In this document: in pieces, positions 23,595 through 50,164 of the stretch | Position numbering within the stretch: the stretch's first letter is position 1 | How the letters are laid out: each line of letters starts with the position of its first letter | Assembly (NCBI GenBank): GCA_016650125.1 | Contig: JAENWT010000008.1 | Location: 62,001 to 126,000 of the forward strand | Source: Thermoleophilia bacterium | Lineage (GTDB): Bacteria > Actinomycetota > Thermoleophilia > Solirubrobacterales > 70-9 | DNA length: 64,000 bases | Reading direction: 5' to 3' | Notes under the pieces: model-generated | Databases searched by the model: none | Seen by the model: the letters and a program-made list of their open reading frames with translations, nothing else | What the model was told of the DNA's origin: nothing | Position numbers and translations under genes: made by a program

Positions 23595-24249
23595 AAGCCC
23601 TGAGGTGGCGGGCGGCGCCCGGGAACGTCCTGGACGCGCCTTGACTTCGTCGACACTCGCTCGGCTTGCTCATTGACAGATGTCAAATCGCTTCACCGGC
23701 TCGCTTACTCCTCGCCAGCCACGCCCAGGACGTCCCCGGACACCACCACTTACGTTCTTTGAAAGGTCCAGCCGCGAAAGCCCGCAAAGAAGGAAGTGAT
23801 CGGAATTACAACGGATATACCGTCGTAATCCCGATCGGTATCGGTGCTGAGCTCGAAGTAACCTGGATCGAGGCCACCTCACGGCCCTTATCCCGGTCAC
23901 TTCGCGGATAAAGACGAGCAACAGCAGCTATTTGGACTTCCGCATCGCCGTGTAGGCCGTACCGGGGTAGCCCGGTAAAGACATGGTCAGCTAGTCGAGA
24001 CATCGAAGTTGGTTTTACGACCGTGTTCCGAACGCAGACTGATTTCGGAAATACCAACTTTGATGCACTTGTTCAGAACTGTGACCTCTGTGAGAGGGCA
24101 AAAACTTCGGGATTGTTCTCCTGATCCGATTTTGCCCGCCATCACGGTAGGCCGATCCATTGGCGGTGCGCCAAAAAAGATTGTGTAAAGCCGAAACTTC
24201 GGTGGTGGGTGGGGTTCCAATGGTTACCAGTCCTCGACGAAGGGATCAG
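23595..24249. other. 655-bp stretch without a recognisable gene
   Basis: This stretch is richer in A and T than its surroundings. Short open frames are present, but none resembles a protein family or shows the usual codon bias. It holds three inverted repeats: TTGACA-GA-TGTCAA (23673-23686), ACCGGG-GTAG-CCCGGT (23961-23976), and GGGCAAAA with TTTTGCCC (24096-24103 and 24130-24137). The last 100 bases must contain the promoter of the DUF6351 gene. It could also hold a decayed gene or a small RNA. Confidence 0.5.
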
Positions 24250-47059: not shown

Positions 47060-47090
47060 AAAGGGCGGCCGCTGGCCGCCCTTTCTCGTT
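47060..47090 (+). terminator. intrinsic terminator of the beta-oxidation fusion gene
   Basis: AAAGGGCGGCC (47060-47070) and GGCCGCCCTTT (47074-47084) form an 11-bp stem with a GCT loop, followed by CTCGTT. Both the stem style and the CTTTCTCGTT tail match the terminator at 23564-23594. Confidence 0.87.
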
Positions 47091-47237
47091 CTGTGCCGCG
47101 TTGCGGTCCTATATGCACCAAACGCGGCACAGAACGCCGGGATCGGTCTACCGCGGGGGCGGGGTATCGGCTATTCGATATCGGTCTGCCGAGGGGGCGG
47201 GCAAAATCGGAACCAGGAGAACAAGCTCCTGGTTTTT
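47087..47237 (+). ncRNA. candidate structured small RNA ending in a strong terminator
   Basis: CGTTCTGTGCCGCGTT (47087-47102) and AACGCGGCACAGAACG (47121-47136) are perfect 16-bp inverted arms around 18 bases. Two copies of a 23-base direct repeat follow, 38 bases apart (47142-47164 and 47180-47202), with three differences. The segment ends in the intrinsic terminator at 47211-47237. It lies after the previous gene's own terminator and has no convincing coding frame, which suggests a separate transcript. No promoter was identified, so it is a candidate only. Confidence 0.35.
47211..47237 (+). terminator. strong intrinsic terminator with T-tract
   Basis: AACCAGGAG (47211-47219) and CTCCTGGTT (47226-47234) form a perfect 9-bp stem with an AACAAG loop; the run of T continues to 47237. 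It is the only terminator in this window with a proper T-tract, and no protein gene ends just before it. Confidence 0.8.
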
Positions 47238-47566
47238 GCATGAATCAACCAGCTGATTTGCCTTCGGACAAATCATCTGTTTGCTGCAGTGCGACCCCGC
47301 ATCGACATCACAGTTTTGGATAAGGCCGGATTTCCCAACTGGGAAATCTCGGCGTTTGCTGCAGTGGGAGGATTTCTGCGACATCGCACGGGTCAGCCCT
47401 GTCCGGTCCGGGCCAGCGAGACCACAAAAGTCCGGCATTATCGGGGACTTTCGTGGTCTCGATGCCCTTCAGAGTGCCGAGATCGGGAAAGTGGCCGTAT
47501 AGCGCTCACTTTCCGGGTTTCGACGACCTGAGGCTTACGAGACTCGGCCTTTTCGGGAGCCCCCGT
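47238..47566. other. 329-bp gene-free stretch filled with inverted repeats
   Basis: No credible coding frame is present. Four inverted repeats follow one another: TGATTTG with CAAATCA (47254-47275), GATTTCCCA-AC-TGGGAAATC (47329-47348), 17-bp arms with one mismatch (47417-47433 with 47445-47461), and GGAAAGTG with CACTTTCC (47486-47514). The 12-mer TTTGCTGCAGTG occurs twice (47280 and 47355). Such density of stems suggests a set of small mobile or RNA-encoding elements rather than simple spacer. Confidence 0.5.
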
Positions 47567-47708
47567 AAGTGGTGCACGGGGACTGCCTGAGAGCGGCTGG
47601 CGAGGAGTAAAGGCAGGGAATGTCCGCGATCGTACCCCGGCACTTGAGCTGTCATTCCCTGCCATCGACGAAGCCAGGCGCCGCGCAGGCAGTTCCCAGG
47701 CACCACTT
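47567..47708. repeat. palindromic ~143-bp repeat, copy 1
   Basis: The outer arms pair from AAGTGGTGC (47567-47575) with GCACCACTT (47700-47708) and continue inward through ACTGCCTG/CAGGCAGT-like segments. An inner stem, GGCAGGGAATG (47612-47622) with CATTCCCTGCC (47653-47663), caps the structure. The element ends 30 bases before the DDN-family gene. Copy 2 lies immediately after that gene. Two base pairs of the inner stem differ between copies with both partners changed, which points to selection for structure. Confidence 0.75.
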
Positions 47709-47738
47709 CCCGGGCGCTGCTTCCCATACATTCCCTGC

Positions 47739-48191
47739 ATGGATGACCTCTCGCTTCGTATCGCCGACAAGACCTGGCCAGTGCTCAGCAGGGTCATGGG
47801 TGGACACACGCGGATCTATCGGCTCACCGGGGGCAGGATCGGTCACAGCGCTCCCGGTGGCCTCACGATGCTCCTTCTCGACCACGTCGGTGCGAAGAGT
47901 GGCAAGAAGCGCACCAGCCCTCTGCTCTACATGGACGACGGCGATGACGTCTTCATCGTCGCTTCGAAGGGCGGCTACGAGAAGAGCCCGGGCTGGTTTT
48001 ACAACCTCAAGGCGAATCCTGACACCGAGGTGCAGATCGGCAGCGAACACCGGAAAGTTCACGCGCGGGTGGCGACGGCCGAGGAGCATGAGCGCCTCTG
48101 GCCGGAAGCGGTCAAGGTCTACCCGTCGTACCAGCAGTACCAGGACCGCACGAAGCGGGAGATCCCGCTGGTCATCCTCGAAAAAAGATAG
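47739..48191 (+). CDS. DDN-family (F420-dependent nitroreductase-type) protein
   Basis: The 150-residue protein matches the deazaflavin-dependent nitroreductase (DDN) family. Typical segments are TMLLLDHVGAKSGKKRTSPL near residue 45, FIVASKGGYEKSPGWFYNLK near 72 and ANPDTEVQIG, followed by the tail YPSYQQYQDRTKREIPLVIL. DDN proteins reduce quinones and nitro compounds with reduced cofactor F420, often at the membrane. It is bracketed by the two copies of a palindromic repeat (47567-47708 and 48200-48342). No ribosome site is obvious before its ATG. Confidence 0.87.
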   Translation: MDDLSLRIADKTWPVLSRVMGGHTRIYRLTGGRIGHSAPGGLTMLLLDHVGAKSGKKRTSPLLYMDDGDDVFIVASKGGYEKSPGWFYNLKANPDTEVQIGSEHRKVHARVATAEEHERLWPEAVKVYPSYQQYQDRTKREIPLVILEKR

Positions 48192-48199
48192 ACCGCAGC

Positions 48200-48342
48200 A
48201 AGTGGTGCCGGGGAACTGCCTGCGAGCGGCTGGCGAGGAGTAAAGGTCGGGAATGTCCGCGATCGTACTCACGTACCTGAGCTGACATTCCCGATCGTCG
48301 ACGATGTCCAGGCGCCGCGCAGGCAGTTCCCGGGCGCCGCTT
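48200..48342. repeat. palindromic ~143-bp repeat, copy 2
   Basis: This is a near-identical copy of 47567-47708 in the same orientation. Its outer arms run from AAGTGGTGCC at the left to the CGCCGCTT end, keeping pairing through G-T wobbles. Its inner stem is GGTCGGGAATGT (48245-48256) with ACATTCCCGATC (48285-48296). It starts eight bases after the DDN-family stop and ends three bases before the stop codon of the convergent subtilase-like gene, so it lies in the 3' region of both genes. Confidence 0.75.
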
Positions 48343-48345
48343 GCC

Positions 48346-50103
48346 CTACTTGCCGGCGAAGACGCTCAGCCTGTAGCGGTAGTTCTCGGTGACCTTGTGG
48401 GGGCTGGGGGTTACCGCGACGTAGACGATCTGAGCCTTGCGCTTGAGGTTCTGGACCCGGACGCCTTCGGTCTTGGTGCGGGGGCGGTCCGATTTCACGA
48501 TCAGGTTCTTGCCGGGCTTGAGGATCGACTTCACCTTTGGCTTGAAGACCTCCAGCTTGATGTCGCCCTGGTACTGGGCACCGGTGATCAGGACCTTCCG
48601 GCGCGGCGCGATCTTCACCCGGTAGACGTCGGCCGGATCCTCGTCCTGGGCGAGCGTCGCGGTCACGGCCTTGCTCCTTCCGGATCCGGGCTTGAAGAGG
48701 AACCCGGCCTTCTTGAGCAACGATCCGTCGATCCACTTGATGTCGTTATTGGGCTCGCGCCGATCGGCCGAGGGGGCGGTCACGGTCAGGGCGGCGTCGA
48801 TGTTCAGCAGCCCTTCGCCATATTGGTCGTCGCGACCCGGGGCGCCGAGGTCGGTCGCCGAGTGGGTGAGTGCCTTGCTGACCTGCTCGGCGTCGAGGTC
48901 GGGCCGTGCCTCAAGGAGCCAGGCCGCGGCGGCGGACACCATCGGCGCAGAGAAGCTGGTGCCGCTCTGCTTCGACCAGCTGCGCTTGACTCCGCCGGTG
49001 GGGTTCGTGGTCACGTCCGGGGCGAACACCGCGACGCCGGGCGCGGTGATGTCGACGCCGGGATTGCTCGTGGCGAAGGGGGCGGTCAGACCGTCCTCGT
49101 CGACCGCCGAGACGGTGAGCACGTGTGGATCGTTGGCGGGCCGGACGGCCGCATTGCCTTCGAGGCCGGTGTTGCCGGCCGAAGCGACGGGCAGCACGCC
49201 CTTGCTGACTGCGTATTCGGTCGCTACAAAGTGGGAGAAGCAGCTGTCGACCGGCAGGGCGTAACTCAGGTTGAGTACGGCACTCCCGGCCTTGACCGCC
49301 TTGATGACGGCGTTTGCGGCGGTCGAGCAAGTCGTGCCCGAAGGAACCAGTCGCATCTTCATGCCAGGCCAGACGCCGCGGATACCCAGGCCTTCGCCGG
49401 GTGAGCCGGCGATCGCGGCGACGGCAGTGCCATGCGAATCCTTGGCCGGGCTGAGCGAACTGGCGTCGGCGAGGCGGGCCGTGGTCAGATCGGGGTGCAG
49501 CGGATCGACCGATTCTTCGATCACCGCCAGTTCCGGACTGAACTCATTGACCGCCGGCGGGGTCGTGACGGTCGGATTGACGATGCGGTTGAGCCACCAC
49601 TGATTGTCCGAATAAAGGTCGGCCGGGTAGCTGGCGGGCGCGATCGCGACATCTGGTTCGGCGAATACGAGCCGCCCGGAGCCATCGAGCGAACCGGCGA
49701 AGGCGACGGCGTCATCGCGGTCGATCGTGAAGATTCCGGTCGTCCTGTCCACAGGGCTGGCACCGGCCCGCCCGGCGATCCGGTCGGTAACCGCTCCGGG
49801 ACGCCCGCCGACGATCCAAGTCGTGGCGCCGGATGCGGAGGTGGACGCGCCGCTCACCGAGGCGGTGGCCGCGTCGGTCACCGGCGGCAATTCCATCGGG
49901 GGCCGGGGCGATGAAGCGATCGCCACGGTCGCCAGACAGAGAAGGGCGATAGAGATTGTCGCGAGCAGGAGCAGCAGCAGGGGAAATTGACGGCTGATGC
50001 CGGATGCCCCCTGTGGCGACGGATGAGACTCGGTTGTCTGATGCCTGTGCTTCTGCATGCTCTGTCTGTAACCCGTCAAATGCTTGGTGGTATCGGCCTC
50101 CAT
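48346..50103 (-). CDS. secreted subtilase-family (S8) protein with altered catalytic Asp
   Basis: The 585-residue protein has a signal anchor near residue 40-65 (FPLLLLLLATISIALLCLA). An S8 domain follows from about 185 to 420. The His motif DSHGTAVAAIAG and the Ser motif GTSFSAPMVSAAAAWL are intact. The Asp motif, normally VIDTGVD, reads LAVIEESVDPLHPDL, with Glu at the catalytic position. The last 150 residues are a Lys-rich beta domain. The start is uncertain (ATG 50103 here; ATG 50058 is also possible). Whether it is an active protease is open. Confidence 0.75.
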   Translation of the reverse strand: MEADTTKHLTGYRQSMQKHRHQTTESHPSPQGASGISRQFPLLLLLLATISIALLCLATVAIASSPRPPMELPPVTDAATASVSGASTSASGATTWIVGGRPGAVTDRIAGRAGASPVDRTTGIFTIDRDDAVAFAGSLDGSGRLVFAEPDVAIAPASYPADLYSDNQWWLNRIVNPTVTTPPAVNEFSPELAVIEESVDPLHPDLTTARLADASSLSPAKDSHGTAVAAIAGSPGEGLGIRGVWPGMKMRLVPSGTTCSTAANAVIKAVKAGSAVLNLSYALPVDSCFSHFVATEYAVSKGVLPVASAGNTGLEGNAAVRPANDPHVLTVSAVDEDGLTAPFATSNPGVDITAPGVAVFAPDVTTNPTGGVKRSWSKQSGTSFSAPMVSAAAAWLLEARPDLDAEQVSKALTHSATDLGAPGRDDQYGEGLLNIDAALTVTAPSADRREPNNDIKWIDGSLLKKAGFLFKPGSGRSKAVTATLAQDEDPADVYRVKIAPRRKVLITGAQYQGDIKLEVFKPKVKSILKPGKNLIVKSDRPRTKTEGVRVQNLKRKAQIVYVAVTPSPHKVTENYRYRLSVFAGK

Positions 50104-50164
50104 CAAATTATTGGAAATCCGCCACCGGCACGCGCCGGGCGCCGCGAGGCCACCGAATCACCAT

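What the first reader, a model, noticed from the sequence alone, without database searches (positions are those of the whole stretch)
47567..48342. Gene cassette bracketed by two copies of a covarying palindromic repeat
Two ~143-bp elements in the same orientation flank the DDN-family gene (30 bases before its start, 8 after its stop). Each folds into a long stem with an inner stem. Between copies, the inner-stem pair C-G becomes T-A and the neighbouring A-T becomes C-G, with both partners changed each time, and outer pairs become G-T. This supports selection for the folded form, as RNA or single-stranded DNA. The layout resembles a mobile gene cassette or REP-type element without a visible transposase.
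Basis: seen in the sequence. Interest (0 to 1): 0.7.

Follow-up and report, generated by a model that had tools for sequence, protein, structure and literature searches.

The report
Covarying hairpin repeat beside stop codons
The two hairpins around this gene are ordinary copies of a roughly 25-copy repeat family found in one genus of bacteria; the family keeps its fold on one DNA strand and sits with a fixed polarity just after the stop codons of unrelated genes, so it looks like an unusual REP-type mobile repeat and not a gene cassette.

Summary
They are two of about 25 copies of a dispersed hairpin family in this Solirubrobacterales MAG. The family is present in 12 of 17 other congeners and in none of 43 genomes outside the genus. 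Structure is strongly conserved: in 23 aligned copies, 20 of 40 pairs changed on both sides. Three conserved internal-loop steps look like tandem G-A pairs. Folding is strand-specific: one strand folds about 20 kcal/mol better in 70 of 70 copies. Placement is polar: the stop codon of the gene facing the element's 3' side lies within 12 nt in 35 of 44 congener copies, never on the other side. Stops there are TAG/TAA-rich. Presence varies between species at the same genes (mraY, ilvC). There is no promoter and no T-tract. No Y1/RAYT, IS630 or IS110 transposase, reverse transcriptase or integron integrase was found in element-bearing genomes. DDN orthologs occur without the elements, so DDN is not cassette cargo. 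Best reading: a new REP/MITE-like non-autonomous repeat family recognised as a strand-specific hairpin; the mobiliser is unknown.

The parts
47567..47708 (+). Copy a of the hairpin element (folded strand = +)
   Evidence: CM R1 hit 144 bits at 47564-47712; fold z -7.1
48200..48342 (+). Copy b of the hairpin element (folded strand = +), 8 nt after the DDN stop and 3 nt from the stop codon of the convergent S8 peptidase gene
   Evidence: CM R1 hit 146 bits at 48197-48347; fold z -8.8
47602..47610 (+). Copy a, 5' side of the conserved internal loop (GAGGAGTAA)
   Evidence: loop conservation
47664..47672 (+). Copy a, 3' side of the conserved internal loop (ATCGACGAA)
48235..48243 (+). Copy b, 5' side of the conserved internal loop (GAGGAGTAA)
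48297..48305 (+). Copy b, 3' side of the conserved internal loop (GTCGACGAT)
47709..47738 (+). Debris to the right of copy a resembling part of another arm (CCCGGGCGCTGCTTCCC...)
   Evidence: direct-repeat family D2, 81% to 48324-48354
47739..48191 (+). DDN-family gene (F420H(2)-dependent quinone reductase, PF04075), 150 aa; a neighbour, not cargo
   Evidence: E 1.2e-41; orthologs without elements
48346..50106 (-). Subtilase-family (PF00082) gene; its stop codon faces the 3' side of copy b
23609..23751 (-). Third copy in the window (divergent subfamily, inner stem of the GCGAGCCGG type), beyond a terminator-like hairpin after an acyl-CoA-dehydrogenase-like gene
   Evidence: (76.8 bits)

Best explanation
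A genus-specific family of non-autonomous dispersed repeats (REP/BIME/MITE-like), each about 143 nt. The recognised form is a strand-specific imperfect hairpin carrying three tandem-G-A-like internal-loop steps. Shown here: dispersal, covariation, strand bias, polar placement next to stop codons, and presence/absence between species. Inferred: copies spread by insertion at or just after stop codons, with TA-containing stops favoured, through a single-stranded folded intermediate handled by an unidentified recombinase or transposase acting in trans. Landing after the stop leaves the gene intact. Once there, the hairpin becomes part of the 3' untranslated region or the operon spacer and may affect mRNA stability or termination only secondarily. 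The two window copies are two such insertions that happen to lie near each other.
For: Copies: about 25 in the own genome, 12 of 17 congeners, 0 of 43 genomes outside the genus; an exact-core scan of GTDB genomes hits only Solirubrobacterales MAGs apart from two Streptomyces hits that the covariance model does not confirm. Structure: 20/40 pairs with both-side changes; in the internal loop the 6th base of one side and the 3rd of the other covary (45 G-C, 14 A-T of 64). Strand: folded strand more stable in 70/70 copies, mean 20 kcal/mol; G.T 217 against A.C 30 cells at model pairs; other hairpins in the same intergenic regions show no bias, 23 against 18. Placement: facing stop within 12 nt in 35/44 congener copies, 0/46 on the other side; 39 of 53 against 7.5 expected for random placement in the same gaps; TA-type stops 31/36 at these sites against about a third of the others. 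Mobility: intact, truncated or absent behind mraY and ilvC in different congeners; same gene with different subfamilies or opposite orientation; host genes are unrelated. Against an own RNA gene: a -10-like motif precedes only 4 of 68 copies (30 in shuffles) and T-tracts adjoin 2-3 of 70.
Against: No insertion was caught with a clean target duplication or a clean empty site; the ilvC comparison shows insertion plus other rearrangement. No transposase was found, so the mobiliser is an assumption. Some orthologous positions are occupied in several species, which vertical retention under selection would also give. Copies are related, so strand and pair counts are not independent events. All genomes are draft MAGs.
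Confidence: 0.62

Rival explanations
1. An RNA-level 3'-UTR element: the hairpin is kept by selection because it ends, protects or processes the mRNA of the gene whose stop it abuts, replacing the usual intrinsic terminator.
For: Almost always within a few nt of a stop codon; behind ilvC, G012 and G015 have the element where G009, G011 and G001 have an intrinsic-terminator-like hairpin; several positions are shared by orthologous genes.
Against: The strand that folds best is the antisense of that gene's mRNA in 70/70 copies. No T-tract follows on either strand. Presence is erratic between species. Own-genome divergent-subfamily copies lie beyond a terminator-like hairpin.
Confidence: 0.17
2. 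A multicopy small RNA gene transcribed from the folded strand.
For: RNA-like covariation, G.U preference on one strand, tandem G-A-like loops.
Against: No promoter-like -10 upstream (4 of 68 against 30 in shuffles); no terminator; in 27 of 41 congener copies the left gene points away from the element, so neighbours would not transcribe the folded strand; no Rfam match at gathering score.
Confidence: 0.08
3. Integron-like gene cassette: DDN plus an attC-like site. attC sites also follow stop codons and recombine as a folded bottom strand (own knowledge).
For: Position after stop codons, fixed polarity, folding of the strand opposite to the abutting gene.
Against: No integron integrase above cut-off in 18 genomes (the weak matches also ring in all 14 control genomes); host genes are core genes such as mraY and ilvC; DDN orthologs lack the sites; no RYYYAAC/GTTRRRY boxes seen at the ends of the sequences displayed.
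Confidence: 0.04
4. The covariation is a by-product of palindrome-templated (quasi-palindrome) correction, without selection.
For: Such correction can change both arms together (own knowledge); arms of subfamilies are near-perfect.
Against: A DNA-level process should be strand-symmetric; the bias is 70 of 70 with G.T far above A.C, and unpaired loop motifs are nearly invariant.
Confidence: 0.06

Closest known systems
REP / BIME repeats (GTAG-tagged REPs with RAYT transposases; CGTC-tagged REPs), PMC3733652
   Same: Intergenic palindromes folded as single strands, often downstream of coding regions; REP ends often provide the TAG stop of flanking ORFs (PMC3733652); mosaic arrays.
   Different: About 143 nt against 20-40 nt; GTAG tag not seen as a conserved end; no Y1 transposase in element-bearing genomes; long two-part stem with conserved internal loops; one fixed polarity towards the stop codon.
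ERIC/IRU (127 bp), Correia/NEMIS, RUP and other bacterial MITEs (PMC2229807)
   Same: Similar size, long imperfect palindrome, intergenic, 5'-TA-3' at termini in several families.
   Different: No target duplication shown; no IS630-type transposase; sequence relation to these families was not tested; strand-specific fold and stop-codon adjacency.
Pneumococcal BOX/SPRITE repeats (PMC3049150)
   Same: Modular, structured, dispersed repeats that can be transcribed as 5' or 3' extensions of operons.
   Different: Unrelated host; BOX modularity is A-B-C, here a single hairpin plus other hairpin families alongside.
Integron attC sites
   Same: Imperfect hairpin directly after a stop codon, folded strand opposite to the gene, variable stems with conserved structure (own knowledge for attC).
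   Different: No integron integrase, no cassette array, core host genes.

Membership tests
REP/RAYT | RAYT/Y1 transposase in the genome | tested here: not met
   PF01797 found only in G003, which has no element copies
REP/RAYT | 20-40 nt palindrome tagged GTAG (or CGTC) at one end | tested here: not met
   About 143 nt; the base before the TAG stop is C in most displayed copies and varies
REP/BIME (broad sense) | Dispersed intergenic palindromes downstream of genes | tested here: met
MITE | Terminal inverted repeats / long palindrome, no coding capacity | tested here: met
   the element is an imperfect palindrome over its whole length; searches place nearly all copies between called genes
MITE | Target-site duplication | tested here: inconclusive
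   TA-type stops enriched on one side, no matching duplication at the other end, no clean empty site
MITE | Related autonomous element supplying a transposase | tested here: inconclusive
   IS630 (PF13358) and IS110 (PF01548) absent from 18 genomes; other transposase families not tested
Integron gene cassette | Integron integrase | tested here: not met
   TIGR02249: 0 of 18 over cut-off
Integron gene cassette | Gene travels together with its site | tested here: not met
   DDN orthologs in five congeners lack the element
Retron / group II intron / RT-based element | Reverse transcriptase | tested here: not met
   PF00078 only in G003, which has no copies
Known structured RNA (Rfam) | Match above gathering score | tested here: not met
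   0 matches; the sub-threshold hits on the elements are microRNA-precursor models
Intrinsic terminator | Hairpin followed by a T-tract | tested here: not met
   T4 in 2 of 70 (folded strand) and 3 of 70 (gene strand)

The most novel reading that the evidence does not exclude
A new class of mobile element that moves as a strand-specific folded single strand (possibly with tandem G-A recognition motifs) and targets gene stop codons with fixed polarity, driven by a recombinase outside the known Y1, IS630, IS110, RT and integron-integrase families.
Probability: 0.25. Interest if true: 0.78.

Novelty: new variant of a known kind. Interest (0 to 1): 0.52.

Why it matters
Most small bacterial repeats are described by sequence alone. 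Here covariation, strand bias and polarity together say which strand folds, which loops matter and where the element lands, although no enzyme is known for it. If it is mobile, it is a case of insertion aimed at stop codons, a safe harbour in a compact genome. If it acts on RNA, it is a genus-wide 3'-end element that replaces terminators. Both readings can be tested directly.

Tried and rejected
Gene cassette with DDN as cargo (rejected). RAYT, RT, IS630, IS110 and integron integrase as mobiliser. Known RNA family. Intrinsic terminator or promoter-driven RNA gene. Viral contigs: no match to the exact core pattern. Streptomyces pattern hits are not confirmed by the covariance model. Kink-turn or sarcin-ricin reading of the internal loop: no fit by eye; the one-base-shifted register with tandem G-A steps fits and is supported by a covarying G-C/A-T pair. 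Paper search for intergenic repeats in Solirubrobacterales: nothing.

Full report
WHAT IS THERE. The window belongs to an unnamed draft genome (2.83 Mb, 41 contigs; window = contig C8 62001-126000) whose relatives with the same element are Solirubrobacterales MAGs such as 67-14 and HKST-UBA63. Two elements, 47567-47708 and 48200-48342, are 84% identical and in the same orientation; they lie 30 nt before and 8 nt after an F420H(2)-dependent quinone reductase (DDN family) gene. Each folds as one long hairpin far better than shuffled sequence (z -7.1 and -8.8).

A DISPERSED FAMILY. A DNA search of the own genome found 24 matches at E <= 0.01, some of them to the other strand of the same palindrome or to the two arms of one copy. 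A covariance model built from 23 copies finds about 25 full-length copies in the own genome, including a third one in the window at 23609-23751. It finds copies in 12 of 17 other congeners and in none of 43 relatives outside the genus. An exact 20-base core pattern against one genome per GTDB species finds only Solirubrobacterales MAGs, apart from two Streptomyces hits that the model does not confirm. The same pattern has no match in viral contigs.

STRUCTURE. On an alignment not fitted to the structure, 96.7% of cells form standard pairs (shuffled 83.3%), 20 of 40 pairs have changes on both sides, and sliding the partner by one column destroys pairing. Conserved internal loops hold many of the invariant bases (AGGA on one side, GACG on the other, GAT and TGAGC near the tip). 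The lower internal loop GAGGAGTAA/GTCGACGAA can be read, with a one-base shift, as tandem G-A, G-C, tandem G-A, G-C. The last G-C becomes A-T together in 14 of 64 copies (45 G-C), which supports that register; the tip loop GATC/TTGA offers a third tandem G-A step. These non-canonical pairs are inference from sequence.

WHICH STRAND. The strand modelled is more stable than its complement in 70 of 70 copies, by 20 kcal/mol on average with RNA parameters, and in 69 of 70 with DNA parameters. At model pairs G.T outnumbers A.C 217 to 30; among otherwise Watson-Crick pairs it is 62 to 25. Other hairpins of the same intergenic stretches show no such bias (23 against 18). This argues that a single folded strand is what is selected, and against strand-symmetric palindrome correction. 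It does not tell RNA from single-stranded DNA. The copies are related by descent, so these counts are not independent events.

WHERE IT SITS. In congeners the gene facing the element's 3' side has its stop codon there in 40 of 44 copies, within 12 nt in 35; no copy has a stop codon within 12 nt of its 5' side. In the own genome 19 of 24 face a gene 3' end, 8 within 12 nt; the divergent subfamily often lies 70-80 nt away, beyond a terminator-like hairpin. Random placement in the same gaps would give 7.5 within 12 nt; 39 are seen. Next to the element stops are TAG or TAA in 31 of 36 congener cases, against about one third of other genes in the same loci. The folded strand is therefore the antisense of the abutting gene. 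Genes were called with a simple codon-usage script, so single cases may be wrong. Host genes are unrelated: ketol-acid reductoisomerase, MraY, glutamine synthetase, a sigma factor, NDK, thiolase and others, named from recognition of their sequences and not by a database scan.

MOBILE OR FIXED. Behind mraY the element is intact in G012, G015 and G014 (two in tandem), reduced to arm remnants in G006, G009 and G010, and absent in G000, G001, G011 and others. Behind ilvC it is intact in G000, G012 and G015, partial in G006 and G017, absent elsewhere. Where G009 and G011 have an intrinsic-terminator-like hairpin after ilvC, G015 has the element. Some orthologous sites carry different subfamilies, and one intergenic region carries the element in opposite orientation in two species. 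This pattern fits recurrent insertion and decay, but no clean empty site with target duplication was found.

THE DDN BRACKET. DDN orthologs in G012, G001, G006, G013 and G017 have no element nearby. In G017 the gene still sits beside a convergent S8 peptidase gene (about 0.85 kb apart), as in the window. DDN was thus there without the repeats, and the bracketing is two independent copies. Copy b obeys the placement rule (3 nt from the S8 stop); copy a is an exception and has arm-like debris on its right.

MECHANISM. No promoter-like -10 precedes the folded strand (4 of 68, 30 expected by shuffling) and no T-tract follows on either strand. An own RNA gene or an intrinsic terminator is therefore unlikely. 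Y1/RAYT transposase and reverse transcriptase occur only in G003, which has no copies; IS630 and IS110 transposases are absent from 18 genomes; no integron integrase passes its cut-off. The best-supported reading is a REP/MITE-like non-autonomous repeat recognised as a strand-specific hairpin and tolerated just after stop codons. The enzyme and the single-strand intermediate are inferred.

COMPARISON. REPs are 20-40 nt, GTAG- or CGTC-tagged, often downstream of genes, and often lend their TAG to flanking ORFs (PMC3733652). ERIC, RUP and NEMIS are MITEs with TA at their termini and paired stem-loop structures (PMC2229807). BOX repeats can be transcribed as operon extensions (PMC3049150). The present family works like these but meets neither the REP/RAYT nor the integron definition; it is filed as a new variant of dispersed palindromic repeat.

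Noticed in passing
window 47087-47136: Another hairpin repeat: 16-bp perfect stem around GCGGTCCTATATGCACCA; a sequence with the same loop core (GGTCCTATATGCAC) and a different stem occurs beside the arm match in L013.
   Followed up: no
window 47144-47520: Mosaic of further repeats: doubled CGGTCTRCCGNGGGGGCGGG at 47144 and 47182, TTTGCTGCAGTG-tagged short hairpins at 47279 and 47354, a 23-bp hairpin 47411-47467. Parts recur at other own-genome loci.
   Followed up: partly
congener loci such as L126, L111, L106: Downstream of the element several other hairpin families recur in similar order: one with a GTATA-type loop, one with a CTATAT loop, one with GTGGGTCGGA stems. The genus seems rich in ordered intergenic hairpin arrays.
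   Followed up: partly
G015 and G012 ilvC (L167, L162) versus G009, G011 (L166, L171): The element occupies the place where other species have an intrinsic-terminator-like hairpin, next to a promoter-like TTTACA...TAG(G/T)TT of the next gene.
   Followed up: partly
G014:C4:94112-94408, G014:C1:453008-453305, G014:C14:44167-44451: Head-to-tail dimers of the element, in the genome with the most matches (43, both strands counted).
   Followed up: no
G010:C54, C81, C20 (L026, L041, L046): MAG contigs end inside the element, as expected of assembly breaks at near-identical copies; copy numbers in MAGs are therefore lower bounds.
   Followed up: no
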